A stretch of DNA of 64,000 bases from NCBI GenBank assembly GCA_026708185.1, contig JAPOVK010000025.1, positions 1 through 64,000 on the forward strand. The letters are read 5' to 3'. Both the position numbers and the translations under genes were made by a program. The notes beneath the pieces were generated by a model. It had not been told where the DNA came from, searched no databases, and worked only from the letters and a program-made list of their open reading frames with translations. This document shows positions 17,064 to 32,923 of the stretch, in pieces. How positions within the stretch are numbered: the first letter of the stretch is position 1; the number at the start of each line of letters is the position of its first letter. Origin of the DNA: Gammaproteobacteria bacterium (GTDB lineage: Bacteria > Pseudomonadota > Gammaproteobacteria > Pseudomonadales > Azotimanducaceae).

Positions 17064-17078
17064 GGCAACACACCGAGG

Positions 17079-17098
17079 CGCGTCGCTGCCGCGACGCG
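17079..17098. repeat. Perfect hairpin in nuoM-nuoN gap, first of three
   Basis: CGCGTCGC, loop TGCC, GCGACGCG. The stem matches the first eight bases of the tandem pair at 10350-10397. Confidence 0.7.
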
Positions 17099-17101
17099 TT
17101 C

Positions 17102-17122
17102 GAGAAATGCTCCGCATTTCTC
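17102..17122. repeat. Perfect hairpin in nuoM-nuoN gap, second of three
   Basis: GAGAAATGC, loop TCC, GCATTTCTC, three bases after the first. Its arms start with GAGAA like those at 14667-14689. Confidence 0.7.
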
Positions 17123-17123
17123 C

Positions 17124-17137
17124 CACCGGCTTCGGTG
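17124..17137. repeat. Short hairpin in nuoM-nuoN gap, third of three
   Basis: CACCG, loop GCTT, CGGTG. Three stems within 60 bases fill most of the 104-bp gap between nuoM and nuoN. Confidence 0.55.
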
Positions 17138-17167
17138 ATGCAACCTGTCAGTAAACATCCGTCACTC

Positions 17168-18622
17168 TCAAGGCATCAGGGTTGCGATCGTGGCACCGGC
17201 GAGGTCGAGCACGGGCTGCGGATACACACCGACCCACACCAACGCGCCGGCCATCAGGATCATGACGCTCATGTCCCGTGCGCCGAAGTCGGGCATCGCG
17301 GCCACGTCAGGGTTCGGCGTGCCCTGGAAGGATCGTTGCATCAGGTAGAGGCCGTAAACGGCCGCCACCACGATGCCGACTGTCGCCGCGACAGCGAGCG
17401 GCACGTTCTTCCCGAAAGCGCCCAGGAGCGCCAGGAACTCGCCCACGAAGTTGCCGAGACCGGGCATTCCTACCGACGCAACGACGAAGAACAGGGTCAT
17501 CACGCCCATGCGCGGAGCGTGCACCCACAGCCCGCCCATGCGGGACATCTCCCGGGTGTGCAGCCGGTGCTGGAGGGCGCCGGCCATCATGAACAGGGCG
17601 GCGGTGGAGAAGCCGTGCGCCACCATTGTGACGACCGCGCCCTGCAAGCCGACCTCGTTGAAGGCGTAGACGCCGATCAGGATGAATCCCATGTGCGCGA
17701 TAGAACTGTACGCAACTAGGCGCTTGAAGTCGGATTGGCTGAAGGCCATGAAGCCGCCGTAGAGGATGCTCACCACGCCGAGCAGCATCGCCCAGAACGA
17801 AAAGTCCAGGGAGGCTTCTGGAAACAGCGGCACGGCGATGCGTATCAACCCGTAGGCCCCGGTTTTCAGCAGGATTCCCGCCAGGATGACGCTGCCCGCC
17901 GTGGGGGCCTGCGTGTGCGCATCGGGTAGCCACGTGTGAACCGGCACCGACGGCAGCTTGGTCGCGAAGGCGGCGAAAAAGCCCAGCATCAGCCACATCG
18001 CGATCCCCGGATCGATGTCGGCGGCTAGGAGGTCCTTATAGCTGAACGTGATCTCGCCGCCGGCGCGGAAATGGACGAACACCAGCGCCAGGATAGCGAG
18101 CAGCATGAGCAAGCCGCTGATCTGGGTGAACAGGAAGAACTTCATGGACGCGTAGCCCTTGTTCTCGTGCCCCCAGATGGCGATCAGGAAGTACATCGGG
18201 ATCAACATGACTTCCCAGAAGAAGAAGAACAGGAACAGGTCCATGGCTGTGAAAACGCCCACCACCCCGGCCATCACCCAGAGGATGTTGAACTGGAAGA
18301 ACCCGTGACCCGATTCGATCTCGTCCCACGACGAGACCACCGCGATGATGCCGAGAAACATCGTCAGCGCCACCATCAAGAGGCTCAAGCCGTCCATCGA
18401 CAGCGCGACGCTGATGCCGAAACGCGGGATCCACTCAATGTGCTGCGCGGCGTACAAACCCGTCGCCGCCGGCCCGCCAAGCCACTCGCTGATGGTCCAC
18501 GCCAACCCGACAGCGAAAGCAAGCAGGCTCACGACGCGCGGCGCATTGGCCCCGACGAAACGCTCGGACGCCCAGGCGAGGACGCCGGCCACAAGCAGCA
18601 GCAGGACGACCGCGAGAATCAC
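17168..18622 (-). CDS. nuoM: NADH-quinone oxidoreductase subunit M
   Basis: This 484-residue membrane subunit has the complex-I antiporter motifs: FFFFFWEVMLIPMYFLIAIWG, KLPSVPVHTWLPDAHTQAPTAGSVILAGILLKTGAYG and SSIAHMGFILIGVYAF. It pumps protons in the membrane arm beside NuoL and NuoN. The GTG at 18622 overlaps the nuoL stop (GTGA) and gives MILAVVLLLL, a typical hydrophobic N-terminus; longer open frames run into nuoL. It is followed by the palindrome cluster. Confidence 0.96.
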   Translation of the reverse strand: MILAVVLLLLVAGVLAWASERFVGANAPRVVSLLAFAVGLAWTISEWLGGPAATGLYAAQHIEWIPRFGISVALSMDGLSLLMVALTMFLGIIAVVSSWDEIESGHGFFQFNILWVMAGVVGVFTAMDLFLFFFFWEVMLIPMYFLIAIWGHENKGYASMKFFLFTQISGLLMLLAILALVFVHFRAGGEITFSYKDLLAADIDPGIAMWLMLGFFAAFATKLPSVPVHTWLPDAHTQAPTAGSVILAGILLKTGAYGLIRIAVPLFPEASLDFSFWAMLLGVVSILYGGFMAFSQSDFKRLVAYSSIAHMGFILIGVYAFNEVGLQGAVVTMVAHGFSTAALFMMAGALQHRLHTREMSRMGGLWVHAPRMGVMTLFFVVASVGMPGLGNFVGEFLALLGAFGKNVPLAVAATVGIVVAAVYGLYLMQRSFQGTPNPDVAAMPDFGARDMSVMILMAGALVWVGVYPQPVLDLAGATIATLMP

Positions 18623-20451
18623 AGGACTTCCAGCACGATCAGGAGCACCAGCACGAGACCTAGGCCTAGGTTGGCCGCATACCAACGCAGCCGCCCGGTC
18701 TGCGTCAGCGCGCCGACGTAATGCAGTCCGCGAGCCAGCGCGGCGGCGATCCGGAAGACGAGGTCGACGACGTCGTTCTTGTTGATCCGGGCCATGGCAA
18801 CGAACGGCTTGACGAAGACGCGGTCGTAGACCCAGTCGAAGCCCCAGCCCCCGTGCCAGTAGCGGCGCAGGCCATTTCCTAGGCCCGACTCGACCACCGC
18901 CGAGACATTCACCCGGCCACTGAAGACCACCCAACCGACGAGGACGCCCAAAATCGGCACGGCGATCGTGACCAGAGCGAGCGGCGTGAAGTGGTCCAAA
19001 GGTCCAATCGGCCCGAGCAGGTCGTCGAGGACCGCGATGCCGAACCAACCGCCGCCGATGGATAGGATTCCGAGCACGACGAGCGGCAACCACATGTTGG
19101 CCTTCGAGTCGTCGTGCGGCTCGGTCTTCGCCTGCCCGAAGAACGTCACGATCATCATGCGCGTGGTGTAGAGCGCCGTCATGCCGGCGGCGAGCGCGCC
19201 CCCGCCCCAGTACAGCCAGCCGCCGTTGTCATAGGCCGTCAGCAGGATGGCGTCCTTGCTCGCGAAGCCGGACGTGAGCGGCAGTGCCACCAACGCGGCG
19301 GAGCCGATCGCCATGCTCCAGAACGGGATCGGCAGCTTCTTCCACAGGCCACCCATCTTGAAGATGTCCTGCTCATGGTGCAGGGCGAGGATCACGGACC
19401 CGGATGCGAGGAACAGCAGGGCCTTGAAGAAGGCGTGGGTCATCAAGTGAAAGATCGCTGCGGACCAGGCACCGACGCCGAGCGCCATGAACATGTAGCC
19501 GATCTGGCTCATCGTCGAGTAGGCCAGGATGCGCTTGATGTCCGTCTGGGTCAGCGCCGTGAACGACGAGATCAGCAGCGTTACCAGGCCCACCACCGCG
19601 ACCACATGTTGCGCGTCCGCCGACAGCAGGTACACGTCCTGCATGCGGGCGATCAGGTAGACGCCGGCTGTCACCATGGTCGCGGCATGGATCAGGGCCG
19701 ACACCGGCGTCGGACCCGCCATGGCGTCCGGCAACCAGGTCTGCAACGGAACCTGCGCCGATTTCCCAACGGCGCCGCCGAGCAGCAGCAGACCGATGCC
19801 GGTGGCCATGCCCGGGGTCAACGAGTCCGCATCGGCGAGGATCGCCTGCACCTCCAGGGTCTTGAACTCCCAGAAGAGCAGGAACAGACCAAGGGCCATC
19901 AGCGTATCGCCGACGCGCGTCACGACGAACGCCTTGCGCGCCGCGTAGCCGTTGGCCGGGTCGCGGTGGTAGAAGCCGATGAGCAGGTAACTGCATAGGC
20001 CCACGCCCTCCCAACCGAGGAACAGCGTCAGGAGGTTGTCGCCGAGAACCAGCATCAGCATGGCGAAGACGAACAGGTTCATGTAGGCGAAGAACCGGCT
20101 GTAGCCCTTCGGCTCCTCGTGGTCCTGCCACATGTAGCCGGTCGCGTAGAGGTGGATCAGGAAGCCGACGCCCGTGATGACGCCCGTCATGACCAGCGAC
20201 AGGCTGTCGAGGTAAAGCGTGATCGACGGCGTGAAGTCGCCAACGGCGATCCACGTCCACAGCGGCAGGGAGAACGACGACTGGCCGCTGGCAACGAACT
20301 GCCAGCCGACACCGAGGGCGACGAGGGCGGCCATGCCCACCGAACCCGCACCGACGAACGCCACCACCTTGTCGGGCAACTTGCCCTCGGTGACGAACAG
20401 AACCAGGAAGCCGGCGAGCGGCAGTGCGGGTACGAGCCAGAACCAATCCAT
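18619..20451 (-). CDS. nuoL: NADH-quinone oxidoreductase subunit L
   Basis: The 610-residue subunit carries about sixteen membrane helices, including a C-terminal lateral helix, with the hallmarks FLGWEGVGLCSYLLIGFYHRDP, KSAQVPLQTWLPDAMAGPTPVSALIHAATMVTAGVYL and AYSTMSQIGYMFMALGVG. NuoL forms the distal proton channel of complex I. The ATG at 20451 yields MDWFWLVPALPLAG, a good fit for the NuoL start. It lies four bases after nuoK and overlaps nuoM. Confidence 0.97.
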   Translation of the reverse strand: MDWFWLVPALPLAGFLVLFVTEGKLPDKVVAFVGAGSVGMAALVALGVGWQFVASGQSSFSLPLWTWIAVGDFTPSITLYLDSLSLVMTGVITGVGFLIHLYATGYMWQDHEEPKGYSRFFAYMNLFVFAMLMLVLGDNLLTLFLGWEGVGLCSYLLIGFYHRDPANGYAARKAFVVTRVGDTLMALGLFLLFWEFKTLEVQAILADADSLTPGMATGIGLLLLGGAVGKSAQVPLQTWLPDAMAGPTPVSALIHAATMVTAGVYLIARMQDVYLLSADAQHVVAVVGLVTLLISSFTALTQTDIKRILAYSTMSQIGYMFMALGVGAWSAAIFHLMTHAFFKALLFLASGSVILALHHEQDIFKMGGLWKKLPIPFWSMAIGSAALVALPLTSGFASKDAILLTAYDNGGWLYWGGGALAAGMTALYTTRMMIVTFFGQAKTEPHDDSKANMWLPLVVLGILSIGGGWFGIAVLDDLLGPIGPLDHFTPLALVTIAVPILGVLVGWVVFSGRVNVSAVVESGLGNGLRRYWHGGWGFDWVYDRVFVKPFVAMARINKNDVVDLVFRIAAALARGLHYVGALTQTGRLRWYAANLGLGLVLVLLIVLEVL

Positions 20452-20455
20452 CGCG

Positions 20456-20767
20456 CTACCCGTTGAAGTCGCTCGCCGCGTCGATGTCGAGCGTGTCGAA
20501 GCGTCGCGAGATCTGCAGCACGATGCCGAGTGCCACGGCCACCTCGGCCGCCGCCAGGGCAAGGATGAACATGAACATGATCTGTCCGTCCGGCTGGCCC
20601 CAGACGGCCCCGGCGGCGATGAAGGCGAGGCCGGCCGCATTCATCATGACTTCCAGGGACATCAGCAGGAACATGATGTTGCGGCGTACGAGGACGCCCG
20701 CCAGGCCCAGCAGGAAGAGGATCCCTGCGAGTATCAGAACATGGAAGACCGGAACCTCGATGGCCAT
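20456..20767 (-). CDS. nuoK: NADH-quinone oxidoreductase subunit K
   Basis: The 103-residue protein has three membrane helices and the family's conserved acidic residues ([16 protein letters not shown] and [14 protein letters not shown]). It takes part in the proton channel that links NuoH to the antiporter-like subunits. It begins directly after the nuoJ stop and ends four bases before nuoL. Length and hydrophobicity are as in E. coli NuoK (100 residues). Confidence 0.96.
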
Positions 20768-21295
20768 CTAGGACAGTTCCCGGCGTTCTTCCAAGTACCG
20801 GCGTCCCAAATGGTACGCGCCCACCAGGGCCGCCAGCAGGAGGAAGCCCGCAAGTTCTACGGCCAGGAGGTACGGCCCCTCGCCGAACAAAGCCTCGCCG
20901 ACGGCACGCGGCCCGACCATCTCGCCCTTGGTGTCGACTCCGTCGACGCTCGCGAACGCATACGCGAACACGACCGCCAGGATGGCGACCAGAATGAACG
21001 GGCCAATCCACATCCCCGGTTGCAGCCAGCGGCTCTCGCGCATCACGGACGATCGGCCGAGATTCAGCATCATCACGACGAACAGGAAGAGCACGACGAT
21101 GGCGCCGGCGTAGACGACCACCTCCAGAGCGGCGGCGAACGGTGCCCCCAGCATGAAGAAGATCACCGCCACGGCGAGCAGCGATACGACCAGGTAGATC
21201 AGCGCCCGGGAGGCGTTCTTGCGGGTGATGACGGCTACCGTCGCCCCGATGGCGACGGCGCCAGGAATCCAGAACAGGACGAGGTCCAGGGTCAA
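20768..21295 (-). CDS. nuoJ: NADH-quinone oxidoreductase subunit J
   Basis: The 175-residue subunit has five membrane helices and the motif [25 protein letters not shown] conserved in the family. I chose TTG 21295, which overlaps the nuoI stop as TTGA and has GGAG nine bases upstream; it gives [12 protein letters not shown], a standard NuoJ start. An ATG start exists only deep inside nuoI, and a coding extension would duplicate its bases in another frame. Confidence 0.95.
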
Positions 21296-21810
21296 GGCAA
21301 GAGGCTCCGGACGTCCGTCGGCGGGGCCTCGCGCTGCGCTTCCCCTTTGTCCTTGCCGGCGATTGTCTTGCCGGCCACCTGCCAGAAGCTGTAGTCCGGG
21401 TACTTGCCCGGGCCATCGATGAGGAGGTGCTCCTTCTCGTAGACCATGTTGTTGCGGTCGAACTCGCACAGTTCGAAATCCGGCGTGAGCTGGATCGCGT
21501 AGGTCGGGCAAGCCTCTTCGCAAAGGCCGCACATGATGCAGCGCGAGAAGTTGATGCGGAAGAACTCGGGCAGCCAGCGGCCATCCTCCTCGCGCTCGGT
21601 CTTCTGCAGCGCGATGCAGTCCACCGGGCAGGCCACGGCGCAGAGATTGCAGGCCACGCAGCGCTCCTCGCCGTCGGGGTCGCGGGTGAGCACGATGCGC
21701 CCCCGGTAGCGCGGCGCCTGGTAGGGCATCTCCTCGGGGTACTTGACGGTCTCGTTGCGCATGAACGTGTGCTGAAGCACCGTCCACAACGTTCTGAGCT
21801 GGCTCAACAT
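21292..21810 (-). CDS. nuoI: NADH-quinone oxidoreductase subunit I
   Basis: The 172-residue peripheral subunit carries two ferredoxin-type [4Fe-4S] motifs, [15 protein letters not shown] and [15 protein letters not shown], for clusters N6a and N6b that pass electrons from NuoG to NuoB. The N-terminal helix [16 protein letters not shown] attaches to the membrane arm. The gene starts four bases after nuoH. Length fits E. coli NuoI (180). Confidence 0.97.
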
Positions 21811-21814
21811 GCTC

Positions 21815-22804
21815 TTAGAACCCCCTCGTCAAGCCCACGATCAAGCCCGTCGCCAGGATGTTCACAAGCGTCAGCGGCAGCAGGATCTTCCAACCGAGGC
21901 TCATCAACTGGTCGTAGCGCGGCCGCGGAATCGCCGCCCGCAACAGGATGAAGACGTGGATGAAGAACACGACCTTGATGCCGAACCAGGCGATCGGCGG
22001 CACGAAATCGAAATCCAGGAACACCGGCGCGTGCCAGCCGCCGAAGAAGAGCAGCGTGATCAGGCAGGACGTGGCGATCATGGCCACGTATTCGCCGCAC
22101 ATGACGAAGGCGAATTTCATGCCCGAGTACTCGGTGTGGAAGCCCGCCGTCAGCTCGTGCTCGGCCTCCGGCAGGTCGAAAGGCAACCGATGCGACTCCG
22201 CGAGGCCGGCGATGAAGAAGATCACGAAGCCGAGGAACTGCGGCACGATGAACCACAGATCCTTCTGGGCGTCGACGATCTGCACGAGGCTGAACGTTCC
22301 GGCGTGGATCACCACGCCCATGATCGACAGCCCCATGAACACCTCGTAGGTGACCATTTGCGCCGCCGCACGGAGGCTACCGAGTAGCGCGTACTTGTTG
22401 TTGCTGGCGAAGCCGCCGAGCAGCACGCCGTACACGGCAAGCGAGGACATGGCGAGGAACCACAACAGCGCGATGTTGACGTCGACGACGTACAGGCCCG
22501 GGGCGAACGGGATGACCGCGAGGATCATCAGCATCGACGCGGCGATGATCCCCGGGGCGAGCACGAACAGCGTCCGGTCGCCGAACGGCGGCACCCAGTC
22601 GTCCTTGGTGAAGAGCTTGATGCCGTCGGCTATGCCCTGCAGCACGCCGAACCAGCCGACGCGGTTGGGACCCAGGCGGTCCTGCCACCAGCCGAGCACG
22701 CGGCGTTCCCACCAGACCAGGAACATGACGCCGACCAGCGTCCCTCCCGTCAGCGGGAGGATGAGCACGTAGCTCCAGTTGATGTCGTATCCGAACACGC
22801 TCAA
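21815..22804 (-). CDS. nuoH: NADH-quinone oxidoreductase subunit H
   Basis: This 329-residue membrane subunit has eight or nine helices and the quinone-site loops ([28 protein letters not shown] and [27 protein letters not shown]). NuoH forms the quinone cavity with NuoB and NuoD and connects to NuoA/J/K. Its ATG overlaps the nuoG stop (ATGA). Length matches E. coli NuoH (325). Confidence 0.97.
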
Positions 22805-25518
22805 CCTCTGGCGATGAGGTCCGCCTCGCCGGCCGGCCGCGGGCCCACGGTCCGGACGAAGTCCGGATCGGCCGCCAAGGCCACGGTCGGTGTCGTCACC
22901 AGCCCCGCGCCGGGAATCCCCTGCGCGATGCCGACCACGCCGGGCTGCATGGCATCGTCCTCGTGGACTTCGACGCTGGTATCGAGTTCTTCGATGCGCA
23001 CTCCGTCCCCCGCGGCCACCTGCAGGCGCTTGGCGTCGGCCGGGTTGAGGACGGCGTACGGTGCGGGCGTTCTCTCCAGGACCGGAGCGGAGGCGGCCGA
23101 GAGTTCGTCGCCGCCGAAGACATGGCTCAACCGTGCGACGACGAAAGCCCCGTCGACGGGGCCTCCGCCTTCGGAGGTGCGCAGGGCGAACGGCTCGGGA
23201 TCGCGCGTTACCGGCACGTTCGGGATCAGGCGCACCCCGGGGTCGCCACCGCTCAGTGCGCCGCCCACCTCCTGCTGGAACTTGAACACCGACTGGTTGG
23301 AGTTCCAGCCCGGTGTCCAGACGTAGGGCACCAGCGCGCCCGGCTGCGCGCCGGTGTTCTGCCCCTCCATCGAGTAGGCGAACGGCGTCTCGTCGTCCAC
23401 CGGCGCCTTCGGCTCGTGGACGCTGACATCGGCGCGCATGGCCGTGCGGCCACTGTAGCGATGGGGCTGGCGCGGAATCCGCGTCTCGGCGGCCGTGGCG
23501 CGGAACTTAGCACTCGGCGCGCTGTCCTTGAGCGGTGTGAAAACGCCGGATGCTAACCCCGAGGTCACTTCATCGATGTGCGACCACGCGAGTCGATTGT
23601 CTGCGAGCGCCGCGAGCCAGCGCCACGACGGCGCCACCTCGTCCGTTGGTTCGAAGACCTGGTAGAACCGTTGCGCGCGCGTCTCGTAGTTGACGAAGGT
23701 ACCGGTCTGCTCGGCATACGTGGCGACCGGCATGACCACCGCCGCCGCCTCGGCGGTCGGATTCTCCAACGCGTCGAGCACGATGGAGTTTTCGAGGTCG
23801 ATCTGCTCCGCCGGGGCACGGCGGGTGAGGTCGTTCTCCATCACGATCGACGCCGCGCCGTCGCGCATGCGCCCAAGCGCATCGCTCAAGCGTAGACCCC
23901 CGCCCAGCATGGCGGCGCCGTAGCTGTTCGCCTCCGTCGCGGTCAAGGCGAGCATGGCCTCCCGGCCACCGCCATGACGGCGCAGCGACCAGGCGATGTT
24001 GGCGGCCGCGCGCAGCAATCCGGGTTCCCGGGCTTCGGAGCCCGCGATGATGAGCGGCCGCGCCGCACCGGCGAGCGCTTGGGCGGCGGCGCCCACGAAG
24101 TCGTCGGCGAAGCTCGCGGCATCGATCGCGTCGGCGATCGCAAACCCGGCACGGGCCAAGTCGGCGGCGGCACCGCGCAGCGTGCCGGCAGCGATTTCAT
24201 CAATTCGCGTGGACTTAGCCGATGCCACGTACAAGGGGCTCATGGCCGCCTGGGCATGACCCCGCACGCCGGCGTCCTGCCACTCGGGAATCCCGGCATC
24301 CCGGGCCATGTCGAAGGTCACGCCGCGCACCGCCTGGCGGATCGCCAAGGCCATGCGGGCCGCGGTATTGGAGACGTCCTCGCCGAGTACGAGCACGGCG
24401 TCGGCGCTCTCGATTTCGGTCAGCGAAGGGATTCGGAAGCCGCCTGCCCGGTAGATGTCCAGGGCAGCCGCCATGGTGTCCGCCTCGTCGTCCGCAAGGC
24501 CCGGGCAGAAGTTCTCATGGCCCACCAACTGCTTGAGCGCGTAGTTGGCTTCGAGCGACGCCCTCGGCGAGCCGATGCCGACCACGTCGCCCGACGCCAA
24601 GCGCTCCCCAGCAGCCGCCAGCACGGCGTCCCGGCCCGGCGCCTCGAATACGTCGTCCGCGGCGCGCACGCCCGCCTGGCGGATGCGCTTGTCGTGGTTG
24701 ACGAAGTGCGACCCGTAGCGACCGCGGTCGCAAAGGAAGTAGCCGTTGACCTCGCCGTGGTAGCGGTTGTGGACGCGCTTTAAAACGCCATAGCGCTCGG
24801 CGGAAAACGTGTTGCAGCCGACAGCGCAGTGCGGGCAGATGGACGGTGCCGACTGCAGGTCCCACTTGCGCGTGTAGACCTTGGAGAACGGCTTGTCCGT
24901 GAACACGCCCGTCGGGCAGACCTCGACCAGGTTGCCGGCGAATTCACTCTCAAGCACGCCGTCCTCCTCCCGGCCGAAGAACATCCGCGACCGGGAACCG
25001 AAGGCGTCGAGGTCCTTGCCGCCGGCGTAGTCCCGGTAGTAGCGGACACAGCGGTAGCAGGTGATGCAGCGGTTCATCTCGTGGCCGATGAAGGGCCCGA
25101 GGTACTGGTTCTGCCAGGTGCGCTTGGCACCCGAATAGCGACGCATCGAGTGGCCGGTCATGACCGTCATGTCCTGCAGGTGGCACTCGCCACCCTCCTC
25201 GCAGACCGGGCAGTCGTGCGGATGGTTCTCCATCAACCATTCGATGACCTGCTTGCGGAAGTCGGCGGCGAAGGCGGCCCCTATCGAGACGCGCATGCCG
25301 TCCTGAACCGTCATCATGCAGGCCATCTGCAGTCGGCCGCGCTGATCCGCTTCGTCCGCGTACTGGATGACGGCGCAAAGGCGGCAGGAACCCACGGAGC
25401 CCATGGCGGGGTGCCAGCAGAAGTAGGGGAGATCGAGTCGCTCGGAGAGCGCCGCATGGAGCAGGTTCTCGCCCTCGGGGAGGTCGTAGTCCTTGCCGTC
25501 GATATTGACCGTGGCCAT
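22801..25518 (-). CDS. nuoG: NADH-quinone oxidoreductase subunit G
   Basis: The 905-residue subunit holds an N-terminal [2Fe-2S] (CRLC and CMM), His-Cys3 and further [4Fe-4S] clusters (HDCPVCEEGGECHLQD, CITCYRCVRYYRDYAG), and the extra N7-type site (CPHCAVGCN ... CDRGR) known from gamma-type NuoG. A molybdopterin-oxidoreductase-like domain follows. It passes electrons in the peripheral arm. Its ATG at 25518 sits about 183 bases after a candidate promoter; in the family nuoG normally follows nuoF directly, but here nuoF is 2.6 kb away across three opposite-strand genes. Confidence 0.96.
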   Translation of the reverse strand: MATVNIDGKDYDLPEGENLLHAALSERLDLPYFCWHPAMGSVGSCRLCAVIQYADEADQRGRLQMACMMTVQDGMRVSIGAAFAADFRKQVIEWLMENHPHDCPVCEEGGECHLQDMTVMTGHSMRRYSGAKRTWQNQYLGPFIGHEMNRCITCYRCVRYYRDYAGGKDLDAFGSRSRMFFGREEDGVLESEFAGNLVEVCPTGVFTDKPFSKVYTRKWDLQSAPSICPHCAVGCNTFSAERYGVLKRVHNRYHGEVNGYFLCDRGRYGSHFVNHDKRIRQAGVRAADDVFEAPGRDAVLAAAGERLASGDVVGIGSPRASLEANYALKQLVGHENFCPGLADDEADTMAAALDIYRAGGFRIPSLTEIESADAVLVLGEDVSNTAARMALAIRQAVRGVTFDMARDAGIPEWQDAGVRGHAQAAMSPLYVASAKSTRIDEIAAGTLRGAAADLARAGFAIADAIDAASFADDFVGAAAQALAGAARPLIIAGSEAREPGLLRAAANIAWSLRRHGGGREAMLALTATEANSYGAAMLGGGLRLSDALGRMRDGAASIVMENDLTRRAPAEQIDLENSIVLDALENPTAEAAAVVMPVATYAEQTGTFVNYETRAQRFYQVFEPTDEVAPSWRWLAALADNRLAWSHIDEVTSGLASGVFTPLKDSAPSAKFRATAAETRIPRQPHRYSGRTAMRADVSVHEPKAPVDDETPFAYSMEGQNTGAQPGALVPYVWTPGWNSNQSVFKFQQEVGGALSGGDPGVRLIPNVPVTRDPEPFALRTSEGGGPVDGAFVVARLSHVFGGDELSAASAPVLERTPAPYAVLNPADAKRLQVAAGDGVRIEELDTSVEVHEDDAMQPGVVGIAQGIPGAGLVTTPTVALAADPDFVRTVGPRPAGEADLIARG

Positions 25519-25673
25519 TGCGCTATCCGTCGAAGCGGCTCACACCGCTATCCCGGCGGACCTTGGACAGGCGTGGATCGGCATACGGCCCCGCTTGGAA
25601 CATGACCCCTCCCAATCCGCATGACGCCGCTTGGCCCACGCGTGACTCCCAACAAAGCACTTGCGCGGGCGAG

Positions 25674-25707
25674 ACGCGAAAGCGCGCTAGTAAGCGCGAA
25701 AGCGCGC
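25674..25707. repeat. Two tandem GCGCGAAAGCGCGC-type hairpins in the nuoG leader
   Basis: On the plus strand CGCGAAAGCGCG occurs twice, 10-11 bases apart (around 25674-25685 and 25696-25707). Each can fold to a 4-5-bp stem with a four-base loop. Transcribed from the candidate promoter, they would sit at the very 5' end of the nuoG leader. Confidence 0.55.
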
Positions 25708-25736
25708 ACAATACAGATAGCAGGCGCATGGGGCAA
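25708..25736 (-). promoter_or_regulatory. Candidate nuoG promoter
   Basis: On the minus strand TTGCCC (25731-25736), exactly 17 bases and TATTGT (25708-25713). Both hexamers, the spacing and the bases ATCTG just before the -10 are the same in the nuoA candidate at 32833-32861, an 11-base match (ATCTGTATTGT). Confidence 0.6.
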
Positions 25737-25860
25737 GCCGAGGCGATCTCCTACAACGCATCGAGAGATCGTCCATTTTGCCGCCGTTCAGGACGCGTTC
25801 AAATGCTCATCTCGCGCTGACATGCGGCGGATGCGGAAAGGGCTGTGGTACGGTTTCGAT

Positions 25861-26649
25861 ATGGACAAACGGGAAAAAGCGATCGACCTCCACGGCGGTG
25901 TTTTGCAGCGTGCGCCGATTCCAACGACGCCGCCACACCCGTTGCCGGGCGGAGAGTATGACCGGGACGGTTTCCTGTACCGGTACCACGTTGTGGAGAG
26001 CCTCCGCCACGACCGCGTCCGTCTGACCACGGCGGCATTGCTGGTGCCGTACCTGAGACGCCTCCACGGGAATCGCGCGCTGGTTGCCAGCGACTGCGGC
26101 CTCTATCCGCGGCCGGTGGATCGATTCGCCAAGCCGCTTGCACCGGACATCATGGTCTCGCTCACAGCGGGCGACCTCGACGCCCCCGGGACCGCGCCGG
26201 ACGAGGACCGGATGTCCTACAAGCTCTGGCAGGAACCCGTGCCCGACCTGATCCTGGAGGTGGTCTCTTGGAGTTCCGTCACGCGCGACACCATCGAGAA
26301 GCCGAAACTCTACGAAAGGCTCGGCGTCTCCGAGTTCTGGCTCGTAGATCCGCATCGCCTCACCGATGCGCCCGACGGCTTGCGAGGGGCGTACTTGGTC
26401 GATGGCAGGTATCAGGGCGCGCGGGCACGGACTCCCGGGGCCGATGAAGCGCCGTTGCCACCCGGAGCCGTGGTCTACTGGAGCGACGTTCTTGGGCTCT
26501 ACCTCTATTCCGATGGACCCGAACTGCGTTTCCACCACCCCGTGACGGGGCGGATGCGGGACTTCGCGGAAGAATCCGATGCCCGTATCGCGGCGGAGGA
26601 ACGCATCCGGTCCCTCGAAGCCCAACTTCGCGCATCGCGCGGCGAGTAG
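25861..26649 (+). CDS. Uma2-family PD-(D/E)XK endonuclease-like protein
   Basis: A 262-residue protein with the restriction-endonuclease fold motifs of Uma2: Asp in APDIMVS (about 96) and PDLILEVVSWSS with Glu about 133, followed by KPKLYERLGVSEFWLVDP. A charged C-terminal helix ends the protein. Uma2 domains are frequent in cyanobacteria and planctomycetes, and their physiological role is largely unknown. I chose the ATG at 25861; no clear ribosome site precedes it. It is the first of three plus-strand genes inserted between nuoF and nuoG. Confidence 0.82.
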   Translation: MDKREKAIDLHGGVLQRAPIPTTPPHPLPGGEYDRDGFLYRYHVVESLRHDRVRLTTAALLVPYLRRLHGNRALVASDCGLYPRPVDRFAKPLAPDIMVSLTAGDLDAPGTAPDEDRMSYKLWQEPVPDLILEVVSWSSVTRDTIEKPKLYERLGVSEFWLVDPHRLTDAPDGLRGAYLVDGRYQGARARTPGADEAPLPPGAVVYWSDVLGLYLYSDGPELRFHHPVTGRMRDFAEESDARIAAEERIRSLEAQLRASRGE

Positions 26650-26661
26650 CTGACGACGAGC

Positions 26662-26686
26662 ACGCCCGGTTAAGCACATCGGGCGT
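26662..26686. repeat. Inverted repeat between Uma2 and isomerase genes
   Basis: ACGCCCG and CGGGCGT flank an 11-base spacer, 12 bases past the Uma2 stop. It may end that transcript or act as an operator for the isomerase gene. Confidence 0.45.
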
Positions 26687-26699
26687 TGCGATGCCGCGC

Positions 26700-26705
26700 T
26701 AGAAT
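26700..26705 (+). promoter_or_regulatory. Candidate -10 box (TAGAAT) giving a leaderless mRNA
   Basis: TAGAAT ends six bases before the isomerase ATG at 26712, so a transcript starting at the usual distance would begin at the A of the start codon. The six bases between are all C and no ribosome site is present. No good -35 is visible at 16-18 bases. Confidence 0.4.
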
Positions 26706-26711
26706 CCCCCC

Positions 26712-27332
26712 ATGCACACTGTCGAGTTTTTTTTCGATTGCAGCAGCCCGTGGACCTACCTCGCCTTCGAGCAGATCCAGCGCACACTCGACGAACCGAT
26801 CCGGTCCGGGGACGTGGCACTGCAATGGCGACCGATCCTCGTCGGCGGGGTGTTCAACACCGTGAACCCGAGCGTGTACGAAGCCCGCGCCAACCCGGTG
26901 CGGCGCAAGGCACGCTACCAGGGCAAGGATCTCGCGGACTGGGCGCGCTACGTCGGCGTCGGCATCGGCTGGACCCCGCCGGTCTTCCCGGTCAACAGCG
27001 TCAAGGCGATGCGCGGTGTCTTCGTCGCCGAGGAGGCCGGCTGCCTGGTGCCGTATTCACGGCGCGTCTTCGAGACCTACTGGGGCGAGCTTGCCGACAT
27101 CTCGCAGGACGACGTGCTGGCGAAGATCGTCCTGGAAGTGGGTCTCGACCGGGCGGCGTTCTTCGACAAGATACGATCGGACGACTACAAGGCGAGACTG
27201 CGCGCGAACACCGACGAACTGATCGAGCGCGGGGGCTTCGGATCGCCCACCATGTTCGTCGACGGCGACGACATGTACTTCGGCAACGACCGTATCCCGC
27301 TGTTGGCGTTTAGGCTGGGGCTAGGTCGTTAA
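26712..27332 (+). CDS. 2-hydroxychromene-2-carboxylate isomerase / DsbA-family (kappa GST-like) protein
   Basis: This 206-residue protein belongs to the DsbA-like family of NahD and kappa-class GSTs: the active Ser is in FDCSSPWTYLAFEQI near the N-terminus, and the C-terminal FGSPTMFVDGDDMYFGNDRI is typical. NahD isomerises 2-hydroxychromene-2-carboxylate in naphthalene degradation; related proteins have unknown or glutathione-linked substrates. No aromatic degradation genes are near. The ATG is probably leaderless. Its stop TAA touches the bpt GTG. Confidence 0.88.
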   Translation: MHTVEFFFDCSSPWTYLAFEQIQRTLDEPIRSGDVALQWRPILVGGVFNTVNPSVYEARANPVRRKARYQGKDLADWARYVGVGIGWTPPVFPVNSVKAMRGVFVAEEAGCLVPYSRRVFETYWGELADISQDDVLAKIVLEVGLDRAAFFDKIRSDDYKARLRANTDELIERGGFGSPTMFVDGDDMYFGNDRIPLLAFRLGLGR

Positions 27333-28049
27333 GTGGCCGGACCCGACGTGCTCAAGGTCACTCGGCATGTCGCCGGCCCACATCCGTGCGTCTACTTCCC
27401 CGAGCGCAAAATGCGTGCCGTCGTCGTCGGCGCCGCGCCCGAAGACAAAGCGGCGGTCTATTCACGCTTGGCGCCATTGGGATTCCGCCGAACCGGCAGC
27501 GTCTACTACGCGCCACGCTGCGAAGGCTGCAATGCGTGCATCTCCCTGCGCGTCAAGGCTGGCGAGTTCGCCCCGAACCGGCGCTTCCGCCGCGTGCTCC
27601 GACGTAACGCCGACTTGCAGACGGTGGCCACGGCACGCGACGAGGAGCCCGTCGAACACTTCGCGTTGTACCAACGCTACATCAAGGGGCGCCACGCGGG
27701 TGGCAGCATGGATCCGCCCTCGCCCGCCGACTACATTCAGCTCGCGCACCCGGCGGGAATGGAAACCATCGCCCTGGATATCCGGCAGGATGGCCGCCTC
27801 GTCGCATCGGCCGTCACCGACGTCCTCGACCACGGCCTCGCCGCCGTCTACACCTATTTCGACCCCTCGATGTCGGACCGAAGCCTGGGCGTCTTCGCGA
27901 TCCTCGAGCAGATCGCCGAGTGTCGCCGACGCGGGTTGCCGTACCTGTACCTGGGCTACTGGATCGAGGAATCGGACAAAATGCGCTACAAGGCGGATTT
28001 CGGGCCGGCCGAGGTGTTGATCAACGGCAACTGGTCGCCGCTCCCTTAG
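27333..28049 (+). CDS. bpt: Aspartate/glutamate leucyltransferase (Bpt, L/F-type N-end rule)
   Basis: The 238-residue protein has the Bpt/ATE-like layout: N-terminal FPERKMRAVVVG, the cysteine motif YYAPRCEGCNACISLRVKAGEF, then RRFRRVLRRNADL and the C-terminal LYLGYWIEESDKMRYKADFGPAEVL. It transfers leucine from Leu-tRNA to N-terminal Asp/Glu of proteins, marking them for ClpAP degradation. The GTG at 27333 directly follows the TAA of the isomerase gene (zero spacing). It converges with nuoF. Confidence 0.93.
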   Translation: MAGPDVLKVTRHVAGPHPCVYFPERKMRAVVVGAAPEDKAAVYSRLAPLGFRRTGSVYYAPRCEGCNACISLRVKAGEFAPNRRFRRVLRRNADLQTVATARDEEPVEHFALYQRYIKGRHAGGSMDPPSPADYIQLAHPAGMETIALDIRQDGRLVASAVTDVLDHGLAAVYTYFDPSMSDRSLGVFAILEQIAECRRRGLPYLYLGYWIEESDKMRYKADFGPAEVLINGNWSPLP

Positions 28050-28065
28050 CGCATCCTTGAGAGAA

Positions 28066-28083
28066 GCGGACGAGGACGTCCGC
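28066..28083. terminator. Hairpin between convergent bpt and nuoF
   Basis: GCGGACG, loop AGGA, CGTCCGC. It sits between the convergent genes and could serve both. It lacks a T-run. The stem recurs with another loop at 32924-32941. Confidence 0.5.
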
Positions 28084-28093
28084 ACACCGCCGA

Positions 28094-29374
28094 CTACCGG
28101 TAAGGGCACTTCCCTTGGCGGATGTGCTCCTCGAAATCATCGCGGAAGTAGCGCAACGCGCTGGCCAGGGGCTCGATCGCTCCCGGCGCATGCAGGCAGA
28201 AGGTGTTGGTCACGCCACCGATGAACATGGCGTTGCGGTCGAGGAGTTCCAAGTCGCCTTCCTTGCCGCGGCCCTCCTCGATCTCGATCAGGAGCTCTTC
28301 AACCCACGGCAGCCCCTCGCGGCACGGCGTGCAGAAACCGCACGATTCCTGGGCGAAGAAATGCTCGAGGTTCCGGCACATGTCCACCGGGCAGATCGAG
28401 TCGTCCATGAGGATCATCGTCCCGGTGCCCATCCTGCTGCCGGCCTTCTGGATCGTGCCGTAGTCCATGGCAAGGTCGAGATGCTCCTCGACGAGGAAGT
28501 CGGTGGACGCGCCGCCCGGCAGCAGGCCACGCAGCTTGTAGCCCTCGCGCATGCCGCCAGCGTGCTCCTCGATGATCTCGCGGATCGTGGTGCCGATCGG
28601 CAGTTCCCACAACCCCGGCTTGTTGACGCGACCGGAGACGCCGTAGATCTTGGTGCCCGCGTCGTCGCCGGTGCCGAGCGAGTGGTACCAGTCCGCGCCG
28701 TTGCGGACGATCCCGGGCACGTTGCACAGGGTCTCGACGTTGTTGACGATCGTCGGACGGCCCCAGGCACCGCTCGCAGGCGGGAACGGCGGCTTCTGCC
28801 GCGGCTGGGCGCGCTTGCCTTCCAGCGCATTCAGGAGCGCCGTTTCCTCGCCGCAGATGTAGCGTCCCGCGGAGCGATGAATGCGAAGCTCGAGGTTGAT
28901 GTCGGTGCCGAAGATGCCTCGACCGAGATATCCCTGCGCATACGCGTCGTCGATGGCCTTCGTAAGTTCCCGGAACGGCTCGTGGTACTCGCCGCGGAGG
29001 AAGACATAGGCCGTTTCGGCGTGGATGGCATGCGCCGCGACGATCATGCCTTCGATCAGGATGTGCGGGTTGTACTCCAGTAGATAACGGTCCTTGAAAG
29101 TGCCCGGCTCCATCTCGTCCGCGTTGCAGACCAAGTACTTGCCACCGGGCGTCCGTGCCGGACCCCGCGTGAAGCCCCATTTCATGCCCGTGCCGAAACC
29201 GGCACCGCCGCGCCCGCGCAAATTGGCTTCGGTCACCAGGTCGATGATGTCGTCCGGCTGCATGCCGAGCGCCTTGCGTGCCGCCTCGTAGCCGCCGTGC
29301 GACTCGTAGGCCAAGCGGTCCACCGCGCCGCCGACGGTGTCGATGATCCCGATCAGGGGGCGGGTGTCGTCCAC
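28094..29374 (-). CDS. nuoF: NADH-quinone oxidoreductase subunit F
   Basis: The 426-residue NADH-binding subunit shows the FMN/NADH glycine-rich region (LRGRGGAGFGTGMKWGF), the motif ICGEETALLNALEGKRAQPR and the [4Fe-4S] N3 site (ESCGFCTPCREG). NuoF accepts electrons from NADH. The GTG at 29374 is the last base of the nuoE stop (TAGTG) and gives MDDTRPLIGIID, as in homologues. It is the last gene of the first nuo half; the second half continues 2.6 kb away from nuoG. Confidence 0.96.
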   Translation of the reverse strand: MDDTRPLIGIIDTVGGAVDRLAYESHGGYEAARKALGMQPDDIIDLVTEANLRGRGGAGFGTGMKWGFTRGPARTPGGKYLVCNADEMEPGTFKDRYLLEYNPHILIEGMIVAAHAIHAETAYVFLRGEYHEPFRELTKAIDDAYAQGYLGRGIFGTDINLELRIHRSAGRYICGEETALLNALEGKRAQPRQKPPFPPASGAWGRPTIVNNVETLCNVPGIVRNGADWYHSLGTGDDAGTKIYGVSGRVNKPGLWELPIGTTIREIIEEHAGGMREGYKLRGLLPGGASTDFLVEEHLDLAMDYGTIQKAGSRMGTGTMILMDDSICPVDMCRNLEHFFAQESCGFCTPCREGLPWVEELLIEIEEGRGKEGDLELLDRNAMFIGGVTNTFCLHAPGAIEPLASALRYFRDDFEEHIRQGKCPYR

Positions 29375-29862
29375 TACGCGAACCTCGCGAAGATCTCTTC
29401 GAGCGCCTCCGGGGTCACGTCCCCGATGAGCTCGTCGTCGACCATCATCGTCGGCGCGCGGTCGCAGGCACCGAGACAAACGATCGGCAACAGCGTGAAA
29501 CGGTCGTCTTCCGTCGTCTCGCCCAAGGCGATGCCGAGGTGCTCCTCGACGGCTTTGCGCAACCCGTCGGCGCCCATCACGTAGCAGGACACGCTGTCGC
29601 AGACCATCACAACGTGCCGGCCCACCGGTTTGCGGTAGATGAGATTGTAGAAGGTCGCGATGCTGTCGAGATTCTCGACCGACATTCCCAAGAGTCGCGC
29701 GATGGCGCCGAGGCTCTCGTCGGACACCCAGCCCCGATAGCGTTGAACGATCATCATGGCGTCGATGGCCGCCGACTTACGGTCAGGCAGGTGCGCCGCT
29801 TCCTCTTCAATCTCACGAATCTCGTCGTCCGAGAGGATTTGGACGAGTGCCGCTTCGCTCAT
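29374..29862 (-). CDS. nuoE: NADH-quinone oxidoreductase subunit E
   Basis: The 162-residue protein has four cysteines for cluster N1a in CDSVSCY and CLGACDRAP, and the typical helical N-terminal domain ([32 protein letters not shown]). It sits with NuoF in the dehydrogenase module. The ATG at 29862 overlaps the nuoCD stop (ATGA). Length fits E. coli NuoE (166). Confidence 0.96.
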
Positions 29863-31622
29863 CGGTCCACGTCCGCCATCACGAAGTCGATGCTCGCGAT
29901 GATCGCGATCAGATCCGCCACCATGAACCCTCGGCTGATCAGCGGAATCTGCTGCAGCGCCGGGAACGAGGGGGTCCGGACCCGCGTCCGGTACGCCATG
30001 GTGCCGCCATCGGAGATCGAGTAGTAGGAGTTCCAGCCCTTGGTCGCTTCGATCAGGGTCGTCGACTCCCCGGGCGGAATCACCGGTCCCCAGCTCACGT
30101 TCAGGAAGTGGTGGATGAGCGTCTCGATGTCCTGCATCGTGCGCTCCTTGCGCGGCGGCGTGGTCAGCCGGTGGTCCGACTTCACCGGGCCGGACGGCAT
30201 GTTCTCCACGCATTGGCGCATGATCCGCAAGCTCTGGCGAATCTCTTCGACGCGGACCTCGCAGCGCGCGTAGCAGTCCCCTGCCTGCGCCGTGGGGATG
30301 TCGAAGTCGAACTCGTCGTACATGCTGTAGGGCCGGTTCTTACGCAGATCCCAGTCGTGGCCGGTGGCCCGCAGGGACGGTCCGGTGATGCCCCAGTCGA
30401 GGCCCTCTTCGGTGGTGTACGCGCCGATGCCCTGCGTGCGGCGCTTGAGGATCTTGTTCCTCATGGCCATCTTGTCGTAGTGGTCGAGGCGCGCGGGCAT
30501 GTAGTCGCAGAAGTCGAGGACCATCTTGTCCCAGCCGTCGGGCAGGTCCTGGGTCACGCCGCCGATGCGGAACCAGCTCGGGTGCATGCGCCCGCCCGTG
30601 ATCGCTTCGATGATCGAGAACAGGCGCTCGCGGTCCGCGAACATGTAGAAGACCGGCGACATCTGCCCGACGTCCTGGGCGAAGGTGCCGTAGAACAGGA
30701 GGTGGCTCGCGATCCGGAAGCACTCGGCGAGCATGACGCGGATGACCTGCGCGCGTGTCGGCACCTCGATGCCGGCCATCTTCTCCACGTTCAACACGTA
30801 AGGCAGGTTGTTCATCACCCCGCCGAGGTAGTCGACGCGGTCGGTGTACGGGATGTAGGTATGCCAGGACTGGCGCTCGGCCATCTTCTCCTGGGCCCGG
30901 TGGTGGTAGCCGATGTCCGGCACCGCCTGGACGATCACTTCACCGTCGAGCTGCAGCGCGATGCGGAAGACGCCGTGGACGCTCGGGTGGTTCGGGCCTA
31001 AGTTCAGGAACATGAAGTCGGTGTGCTTGGCGTCCATCTTCATGCCCCACTCCTCGGGCACGAAGCGCAAGGCGTCCTGCTGCGCCTTCTGGAACTCGGG
31101 CGTCATCTTGAACGGATCCATTTCCGTCGCCCGCGCCGGATGCTCCTTGCGCAGCGGATGGCCCTCCCAGAGGGCTGGCGTGAGGATGCGGCGGAGATTC
31201 GAGTGGCCGTCGAAGCCGATGCCGAACATGTCGAACGCCTCGCGCTCGTACCAGTTCGCAACCGGGTAGACAGATTCGATGGAGTCGATGCTCTCGCCGT
31301 CGGCCAACGCCACCTTGATCCGTACATCGTCGTCGTTGGAGACCGAGATCAGGTGGTAGAAGACGGTGAAATCGGACGCCGGCTGATCGTCCCTGTGCTG
31401 ACGGACGCGCTCGTCGATCGCGGAGAGGTCGAACATCAACTCGAAGCGCTCGGGGGCGTCGTTCTTGAGGTAGCGCATGACCGACTTGATGCGGTCCCTG
31501 GGCACCCAAACGGTGGTTATGCCGTCAACGCACGTCTGCGGGATGCACTCGGGTCCGAAGTGCGTGGCGAGGTCCGCGGCGATGTGGTGTTCATCCGCCG
31601 TCTGTGCGAGTGCTTCCGCCAT
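29859..31622 (-). CDS. nuoC: NADH-quinone oxidoreductase subunit C/D (fused)
   Basis: The 587-residue protein fuses NuoC (about 1-190, with [30 protein letters not shown]) to NuoD ([23 protein letters not shown] and [21 protein letters not shown]). The fusion is typical of Gammaproteobacteria such as E. coli; many other Proteobacteria have separate genes. It supports the quinone site in the peripheral arm. The ATG at 31622 leaves a 4-base gap after nuoB. The NuoD part has the conserved HP and R residues lining the quinone pocket. Confidence 0.97.
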
Positions 31623-31626
31623 GGGT

Positions 31627-32310
31627 TTACGCGCGCTTCTTGCCGAGCAGGTCCTTGGAGAGAGGCGCATCGCCGACCGTAGTCGGCTCTGCCAATTTCG
31701 TGGCCCGCATGCGCTCCGGCGTCATCAGGTCGCGCTGGCTCGGGTCGTACTTGGCCACGGAGCCGTCCTCGCCGATCATCCAGGACAGCGGTCGACGGGT
31801 GTTCTTCACGGCTTCCTGCAAGAGCGTCAGTCCCTGCATGAAGGCTTCCGGGCGCGGCGGACAGCCCGGTACGTAAACGTCAACCGGGAGAAACTTGTCG
31901 GCACCCTGCACGACGCTGTAGACGTCGAACATGCCCCCCGAATTGGCGCACGACCCCATGGAGATCACCCAGCGGGGCTCCAGGAGTTGCTCGTAGAGAT
32001 GTTGCAGCACGGGCGCCATCTTGCGGAACACGGTCCCCGACACGACGATCAGGTCGGCTTGGCGCGGCGTCGCGCGGATCACTTCCGCGCCAAAGCGCGA
32101 CAGGTCGTGGCGCGAGGTGAACGAGGTGGCCATCTCCACGTAGCAGCACGAGAGGCCGAAGTTGAACGGCCATATGGAGTTCGCGCGGCCCCATGCGACC
32201 AGGTCTTCGAGCCGCGCCGTGAGGAAACTCTTGCCGGCCTCCTCGTTGTAGGCGTCGTCGACGGACTGCATCGACGCGCCGGGTTCGGTCTTGATGAGCC
32301 GCCACTGCAT
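31627..32310 (-). CDS. nuoB: NADH-quinone oxidoreductase subunit B
   Basis: This 227-residue subunit holds cluster N2, the last electron donor to quinone, with the tandem CC in [13 protein letters not shown] and further cysteines in GSCANSGG and VPGCPPRPE. Its ATG shares one base with the nuoA stop (TGATG). The C-terminal 40 residues are basic and variable as in other NuoB proteins. It is next to nuoCD. Confidence 0.97.
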
Positions 32311-32762
32311 CAGGCGGCCCCCGCGGCCGTTGACGCCTCTTCCGCCCGCGCATAGCGCCCCGGACCGGCCACCCGCCGCTTCAGGCCCCAGTCGAGGGCA
32401 CCGGTGCGCCACTCGTAGAAGAGCGCCGCGAGCAGCAGCACGATGAAGAAGCTCGCACCGATGTAGCCTCGCCAGCCGACGTCGTTGAACGCCACGGCCC
32501 AGGCGATGATGAAGATCGTCTCGAGGTCGAATACCACGAAGAAGACGGCGATCAGGTAGAACTCGATCGATAGCCGCATCTCCTCGGCTTCGCCCACCGG
32601 AACGATCCCGGATTCGAACGGAAGGGTGCGGGCCCCGCCGTGTCGAGCCTTGGAACCGACGAACCATGCGGCGCCGAGCGACGCGGCGATGATGGCCGCC
32701 ACCACGGCGGCGTACAGGAAAAGCGGCAGGATGTCGGCAGCGACCGAACCGTCCTCAGGCAC
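32310..32762 (-). CDS. nuoA: NADH-quinone oxidoreductase subunit A
   Basis: A 150-residue membrane subunit with three helices; the second and third are separated by the conserved loop [36 protein letters not shown], which takes part in the quinone site. The GTG at 32762 has GGGAG seven bases upstream. It starts the first nuo half, with a strong promoter candidate about 65 bases upstream. Length is close to E. coli NuoA (147). Confidence 0.96.
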
Positions 32763-32832
32763 CCTCGTCTCCCTACGCGGAGGTCCTCACATCCGGGGGG
32801 CGTTGCGCGACGCGGTCCCGCGGAAAACCGGG

Positions 32833-32861
32833 ACAATACAGATCGGGTTTCCCTTGGGCAA
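32833..32861 (-). promoter_or_regulatory. Candidate nuoA promoter
   Basis: TTGCCC (32856-32861), 17 bases and TATTGT (32833-32838) on the minus strand, about 71 bases before the nuoA GTG. The arrangement is identical to that proposed for nuoG at 25708-25736. A hairpin GTCCCG...CGGGAC overlaps the -10. Confidence 0.6.
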
Positions 32862-32923
32862 GAGCGGGATCGGTAGCGCTCTTGGAGACCAAGGCCGCGA
32901 TTGCCCCCGGCGCTGGGCGGTAC

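What the first reader, a model, noticed from the sequence alone, without database searches (positions are those of the whole stretch)
25708..32861. Split NADH dehydrogenase operon with two look-alike promoters
nuoA-F and nuoG-N are both on the minus strand but are separated by three plus-strand genes (Uma2, isomerase, bpt; 25861-28049). In most known operons nuoF runs straight into nuoG. Each half has the same promoter candidate, TTGCCC-N17-TATTGT, with ATCTG just before the -10. The 11-base match could show that the promoter was copied when the operon was split, or that both halves keep coordinated expression. The alternative is chance, given short motifs.
Basis: partly seen in the sequence, partly recalled or inferred. 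Interest (0 to 1): 0.75.

Follow-up and report, generated by a model that had tools for sequence, protein, structure and literature searches.

The report
Split respiratory operon with matching promoters
In a group of gammaproteobacteria the genes for respiratory complex I have been broken into separate pieces more than once, and most cut-off pieces examined carry the same kind of start signal as the first piece, which suggests a way for an operon to come apart without losing its joint control.

Summary
nuoA-F (28094-32762) and nuoG-N (15633-25518) lie on the minus strand, split by three plus-strand genes, and both carry CTTGCCC-N12-ATCTGTATTGT. The exact 17-base pattern occurs only at these two places in the 5.13-Mb genome, so chance is excluded. 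In relatives the operon was split at nuoF|nuoG at least three times on an RpoB tree (the nuo tree separates fewer), and also at D|E and E|F. A matrix trained on nuoA promoters alone finds a site above the maximum of 20,000 random windows before 16 of 21 orphaned first genes (16 of 25 counting four nuoF genes behind codirectional inserts) and before 0 of 23 nuoG genes joined to nuoF. A two-box pattern hits 18 places in 16 genus genomes, all at nuoA or nuoG. I read this as a nuo-specific promoter re-established ahead of orphaned pieces, most likely by copying the nuoA 5' region; leaders in seven relatives resemble the start of nuoA. In the window itself nothing beyond the boxes supports copying, so convergence on a regulator site stays a live rival. 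No transcript data were available.

The parts
25708..25737 (-). nuoG promoter candidate: -35 CTTGCCC (25731-25737), 17-nt spacer ending ATCTG, -10 TATTGT (25708-25713); predicted start about 25701
32833..32862 (-). nuoA promoter candidate: -35 CTTGCCC (32856-32862), 17-nt spacer ending ATCTG, -10 TATTGT (32833-32838); predicted start about 32826
25519..25701 (-). predicted nuoG leader, about 180 nt; the corresponding leader resembles a nuoA start in relatives G001-G011 but not detectably here
15633..25518 (-). nuoGHIJKLMN half
25861..26649 (+). Uma2-family gene between the halves (start 25831 or 25861)
   Evidence: PF05685
26712..27332 (+). DsbA-like thioredoxin-fold gene (2-hydroxychromene-2-carboxylate isomerase type by recall)
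   Evidence: PF01323
27333..28049 (+). bpt, aminoacyl-tRNA-protein transferase, tail to tail with nuoF
   Evidence: PF04376/PF04377
28094..32762 (-). nuoA-B-CD-E-F half (NuoCD fused)

Best explanation
The ancestral single nuo operon of this clade was driven by a nuo-specific promoter ahead of nuoA (CTTGCNC-N17-TATNGT followed by a GC-rich stretch). The operon broke between nuoF and nuoG (elsewhere also at D|E and E|F). The orphaned nuoG-N half kept expression because a nuoA-type promoter came to stand in front of nuoG, most likely as a copy of the nuoA 5' region left by duplication of the operon or of its 5' end followed by complementary loss. Shown: the split, the paired sites, their near-exclusive position at nuo, and their association with most splits. 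Inferred: the ancestral state, that these are sigma70-type promoters, that they keep the halves co-expressed, and the copying step.
For: Two exact sites only in the own genome. TTGCNC-N16..18-TATNGTGNCGC: 18 of 18 hits in 16 genus genomes lie at nuoA or nuoG, backward control 1 (positions). nuoA-trained matrix: 16 of 21 orphaned first genes exceed the maximum of 20,000 random own-genome windows, 0 of 23 contiguous nuoG exceed the 99th percentile; among 354 own-genome upstream regions the two nuo sites rank 1 and 2 (38.9, itself a training site, and 27.4; next 9.4). Near intact relatives have the site at nuoA only. RpoB tree: the F|G-split lineages are separated by intact ones. In G012 the separated nuoF also carries it. 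Copying: the nuoG leaders of G001, G003, G004, G006, G008, G010, G011 resemble the start of nuoA more than that of ten other nuo genes (7 of 7 of that clade; 9 of all 16 leaders tested); best pair G013 nuoA vs G008 leader, z 6.3, 0 of 150 shuffles; 14 of 270 pairs beat all 150 shuffles. In 6 of 13 genomes the nuoA and nuoG upstream regions, boxes included, align beyond all 200 shuffles.
Against: In the window and its sister G007 the upstream regions do not align beyond shuffles even with the boxes included (14 against maxima 16 and 18), and nuoA ranks 8 and 10 of 11 for their leaders. Starts of other nuo genes also reach z 4-5 against some leaders (F 5.3 and K 4.6 for G011, I 5.1 for G012, H and K 5.1 for G046), so single z values are weak. 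Same-genome nuoA and nuoG promoters are not clearly closer than cross-genome ones (7 representatives: whole core p 0.15, spacer p 0.69, downstream part p 0.048; with all 9 genomes 0.36, 0.89, 0.07), and same-genome leaders mostly align at chance (9 tested: 3/500 shuffles as good for G012, 11/500 for G004, 39/500 or more for the others). 5 of 21 orphaned first genes lack the strict site (G013 nuoF; G005 and G014 nuoG and nuoE), though four of these match looser boxes with 0-1 mismatch. Four further nuoF genes, cut from nuoE by 0.6-3.2 kb with codirectional ORFs (G003, G004, G008, G038), have no site. 11 of 37 nuoA rows lack even the loose boxes, so the ancestral nuoA promoter is inferred. The G038 nuoG promoter is closest to G004 nuoG, not to its own nuoA. 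No nuo remnant was found in the gaps except one weak 29-residue hit in G004.
Confidence: 0.55

Rival explanations
1. Convergence: a nuo-dedicated activator or alternative sigma factor reads CTTGCNC-N17-TATNGT, and each orphaned piece evolved the site anew under selection for balanced complex I subunits.
For: Spacers differ while boxes are kept; G038 and G039 nuoG match the genus motif exactly while the G038 nuoA promoter has only the loose boxes; no clear concerted similarity within genomes; the site is nearly confined to nuo.
Against: Similarity among nuoG and nuoA sites runs past the -10 (GGCGCGGTTTTCGC shared by G038 and G003-G011 nuoG), and a nuoA-start-like stretch lies in the nuoG leaders of one clade.
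Confidence: 0.28
2. Promoter first: an internal nuoA-type promoter arose in a widened nuoF-nuoG junction, which only then became tolerant to insertions; G013 is such an intermediate.
For: G013 keeps nuoF next to nuoG but with a 157-nt gap (11-46 nt in 27 intact rows of near relatives) holding CTTGCTC-N18-TATGGT, which aligns above 200 shuffles with 3 of 11 regions tested, the nuoG upstreams of G001, G008 and G011.
Against: G013 could instead be a re-fusion by deletion. Its site fails the strict matrix (-1.5). More distant intact loci such as L041, L049, L067 and L076 also show 130-350 nt between the aligned ends, so a wide junction is not by itself telling.
Confidence: 0.13
3. Generic housekeeping promoter that many genes share.
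For: The architecture is sigma70-like. The -10 with its discriminator alone is not special (100 hits vs 96 in the backward control). The loose 3-mismatch pattern has 108 non-nuo matches in 38 genomes against 71 in the backward control.
Against: CTTGCNC-N15..17-TATNGT occurs only at the two nuo sites in 864 kb of own genome; 354 upstream regions give no third strong site; all matches with 0-1 mismatch are at nuoA or nuoG.
Confidence: 0.03
4. Chance match of short motifs.
For: Within the window alone the 2-mismatch two-hexamer pattern is not significant.
Against: Exact pair unique in 5.13 Mb and the motif kept at the same genes across the genus.
Confidence: 0.01

Closest known systems
Operon splitting in bacterial gene-block evolution (PMC4481853, passages seen; Price, Arkin and Alm 2006 'The life-cycle of operons', not held, known by recall and as a reference in PMC2653477, of which passages were seen)
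   Same: A conserved operon broken by insertion or translocation in some lineages.
   Different: Here splits at one junction recur and most orphaned pieces carry the operon's own promoter type; the word search in PMC4481853 found 0 for 'promoter' and 'nuo'.
Gap widening with internal promoters in haloarchaeal operon-like structures (PMC7760734, passages seen)
   Same: Widened gaps coincided with an internal promoter in 108 of 466 cases, like G013.
   Different: Archaeal generic BRE/TATA motif, not an operon-specific promoter repeated at the pieces.
nuoA-N operon of Escherichia coli and other gammaproteobacteria (recalled)
   Same: Same genes, order within each half, NuoCD fusion.
   Different: Contiguous nuoF-nuoG with the main promoter region before nuoA.

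Membership tests
NDH-1 (complex I) nuo operon | homologues of NuoA-N in conserved order | tested here: met
NDH-1 (complex I) nuo operon | one contiguous cluster | tested here: not met
   2.6-kb gap with three opposite genes
Operon splitting by insertion | intact in outgroups, split derived | tested here: met
   number of separate splits depends on the tree used
sigma70-type promoter | two hexamers 16-18 nt apart upstream of the first gene | tested here: met
   sequence shape only
sigma70-type promoter | transcription starts there | not testable with these tools
   no transcript data
Duplicated promoter (common descent of the two copies) | homology beyond the functional boxes | tested here: inconclusive
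   suggestive in the G001-G011 clade, negative in the window and G007; one search included the boxes and does not test this
Co-regulated split operon | both halves expressed together | not testable with these tools
   none

The most novel reading that the evidence does not exclude
The nuo operon in this clade is repeatedly duplicated and reciprocally decayed, each time leaving the same nuo-only 5' cassette (promoter, ribosome site and start of nuoA) ahead of the orphaned half. A dedicated, still unknown regulator reads that promoter, so that operon integrity has been replaced by a one-promoter, several-loci nuo regulon.
Probability: 0.25. Interest if true: 0.8.

Novelty: new variant of a known kind. 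Interest (0 to 1): 0.6.

Why it matters
How operons come apart while their products must still be made in balance is an open question. This clade offers a natural series: intact (G015), widened junction (G013), split nearby (window), and three distant loci in a one-contig assembly (G012), with a promoter specific enough to trace. It makes copy versus convergence, and the existence of a nuo-dedicated regulator, testable.

Tried and rejected
Chance and generic-promoter readings were rejected. The -10 plus discriminator alone was uninformative (100 hits against 96 in the backward control). A first matrix test had a background contaminated by the nuo loci themselves and was replaced, whose background is the own genome only. 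Closeness of nuoA and nuoG promoters within genomes: whole core p 0.15, downstream part p 0.048, spacer p 0.69 for 7 representatives, weaker for all 9. Same-genome leader alignment: mostly at chance. nuo gene remnants in the gaps: none but one weak hit. The crude gene finder called 621 genes in 864 kb, so its 354 upstream regions are a sample.

Rows dropped or chosen: the 21 orphaned first genes leave out four nuoF genes behind codirectional inserts after nuoE (scores -9.0, 8.2, -7.4, -2.6, all below 13.9; with them 16 of 25), the G013 nuoG (scored apart, -1.5) and G002 and G009 (no usable nuoG upstream). The 23 contiguous nuoG rows and the 27 rows are the nearer relatives, not all 80 loci; in the 23, two genomes appear twice (L031/L101, L038/L102, judged from contig lengths and positions). 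The two-box pattern was chosen after seeing nuoA and nuoG sites, trained on 17 nuoA sites only, is the non-circular test. The RpoB tree holds 28 of the 30 genomes searched (one without a match, and G002 left out by me).

Literature searches (open-licence PMC only) listed no report of this clade's nuo splitting; that is not proof of absence.
Full report
Observation. nuoG-N (15633-25518) and nuoA-F (28094-32762) are on the minus strand, with Uma2, a DsbA-like gene and bpt on the plus strand between them. Both halves carry CTTGCCC, 12 free bases, and ATCTGTATTGT. The exact 17-base pattern occurs twice in 5,132,981 bases, here only; with up to 3 mismatches two further, poor places appear. Chance is excluded.

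Specificity. The pattern TTGCC-N15-CTGTATTGTGNCGC with up to 3 mismatches gives 131 matches in 38 related genomes (sum of the table). By position 23 of these are at nuo genes, including all matches with 0-1 mismatch; 108 lie elsewhere, against 71 in the backward control, so the loose pattern has a background. The window's own two sites score 2 and 3 mismatches there because their discriminators differ. The stricter variable-gap pattern TTGCNC-N16..18-TATNGTGNCGC hits 18 places in 16 genus genomes, and all 18 lie upstream of nuoA or nuoG (positions compared); the backward control has 1, and the own genome has 0 for the same reason. In 864 kb of the own genome CTTGCNC-N15..17-TATNGT occurs only at the two nuo sites. 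So this is not the general promoter of the organism.

Relatives. In 27 intact rows of near relatives nuoF and nuoG are 11-46 nt apart (some genomes twice); some more distant intact loci show 130-350 nt between aligned ends. In the window's genus and two other lineages the operon is broken: F|G in the window, G007, G001, G003, G004, G008, G010 and G011 (gaps 2-7 kb); F|G far apart in G041 and G042; F|G in G038, G039 and G046; D|E plus F|G in G005 and G014; E|F plus F|G in the one-contig assembly G012 (nuoG at 0.45 Mb, nuoA-E at 3.30 Mb, nuoF at 3.71 Mb); E|F only in G013. G003, G004, G008 and G038 also have 0.6-3.2 kb between nuoE and nuoF. G002 (no nuoG found), G006 and G009 (short contigs) are incomplete. 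Inserted genes differ: bpt with DsbA-like and Uma2 in the window; a DUF4143 ATPase, bpt, a sodium:alanine symporter, an AAA ATPase and a PLP enzyme in G011; one codirectional ORF in G001 and in G008; an AMP-binding enzyme in G046.

Number of splits. An RpoB tree of 28 genomes places intact genomes between three F|G-split groups: G038/39/46 (support 1.0), G041/42 grouped with intact L071 (1.0), and the genus clade beside intact G015 (0.99); deeper nodes are partly weak (0.31-0.92). That gives at least three separate F|G splits unless exact re-joining is assumed. The nuo protein tree separates G038/39/46 equally well, but puts G041/42 next to the genus clade, where only G015 (position weakly supported, 0.37) and G013 are not split at F|G; it also places the window next to G001-G011, whereas RpoB places it next to G012/G013. 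Within the genus the number of splits is therefore open.

Promoters follow the splits. A matrix trained on 17 nuoA sites only, scored on 320-nt upstream regions, exceeds the maximum (13.9) of 20,000 random own-genome windows at 16 of 21 orphaned first genes and at 0 of 23 nuoG genes joined to nuoF, where none passes even the 99th percentile. The misses are G013 nuoF and nuoG and nuoE of G005 and G014; the latter four match looser boxes with 0-1 mismatch. Counting also the four nuoF genes cut from nuoE behind codirectional ORFs, which have no site, the figure is 16 of 25. With the loose boxes (at most 1 mismatch) it is 18 of 21 orphaned genes, 26 of 37 nuoA rows, 1 of 23 contiguous nuoG, 0 of 4 of those nuoF genes, 0.2% of 3,000 random windows and 4 of 354 own-genome upstream regions, two of these being nuo. 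Rows are related genomes, so 16 of 21 is not 16 events; the hits include all three F|G groups of the RpoB tree. The near intact relatives L013-L017 and G015 have the site at nuoA only.

Origin. Copying is favoured by the nuoG leaders of G001, G003, G004, G006, G008, G010 and G011. There a ribosome site, a GTG and the following bases align to the start of nuoA of other genomes (best G013 against G008, z 6.3, 0 of 150 shuffles, about 60 columns), and nuoA ranks first of 11 nuo gene starts in 7 of 7 of this one clade and in G041 and G038, 9 of 16 leaders in all. Against this, starts of other nuo genes also reach z 4-5 with some leaders; the window and G007 rank nuoA 8th and 10th; the upstream regions, boxes included, align beyond shuffles in 6 of 13 genomes but not in the window or G007; same-genome pairs are at best marginally closer than cross-genome ones; same-genome leader alignments are mostly at chance. 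The G038 nuoG promoter is closest to G004 nuoG rather than to its own nuoA (the G039 nuoA was not in that comparison). Convergence on the site of a dedicated regulator therefore stays open, as does a promoter-first path suggested by G013, whose 157-nt junction holds a similar but weaker site that aligns above shuffles with 3 of 11 regions tested.

Mechanism proposed. Each half is transcribed on its own from a nuo-type sigma70-like promoter, which would keep the stoichiometry of complex I after the split. Promoter activity and co-expression are inferred from sequence only.

Literature. Operon splitting is well known (PMC4481853 and PMC2653477, passages seen). Widened gaps with internal promoters are described in haloarchaea (PMC7760734, passages seen). 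Searches listed no paper on repeated nuo splitting with promoter re-use; only the listings (titles and abstract starts) were seen for the rest.

Noticed in passing
L145, L146, L147, L148, L155, L159, L160 (nuoA start, G001-G011 clade): nuoA has no ATG, GTG or TTG between its promoter region (or the last upstream stop) and the conserved ILPL stretch; a GAGGAG ribosome site stands a few bases before an in-frame ATC. Candidate AUC start codon in seven genomes.
   Followed up: partly
nuoG leaders of L145, L147, L148, L152, L155, L159, L160; window 25523-25603(-): A short leader ORF (29-44 aa in the clade, 26 aa in the window) with a ribosome site ends 3-5 nt before the nuoG start, as if translationally coupled; the frame is not kept in G007.
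   Followed up: partly
L161, L162, L163 (G012): In a one-contig 4.3-Mb assembly nuo lies at three distant loci (A-E, F, G-N), with a nuoA-like promoter at each.
   Followed up: yes
window 32978-34123 and L160:12065-13339: AAA_16 ATPase genes sit next to nuo pieces in both the window and G011; possible mobile or recurrent neighbours.
   Followed up: no
L033:8939-9706: Transposase_31 (YhgA-like) gene in the F|G gap of G039, a possible agent of the split there.
   Followed up: no
G000:C62 about 100738-104117: Second, distant NuoF/NuoG-like pair (about 31-40% identity) outside the nuo operon, probably an NAD-linked formate dehydrogenase by recall.
   Followed up: no
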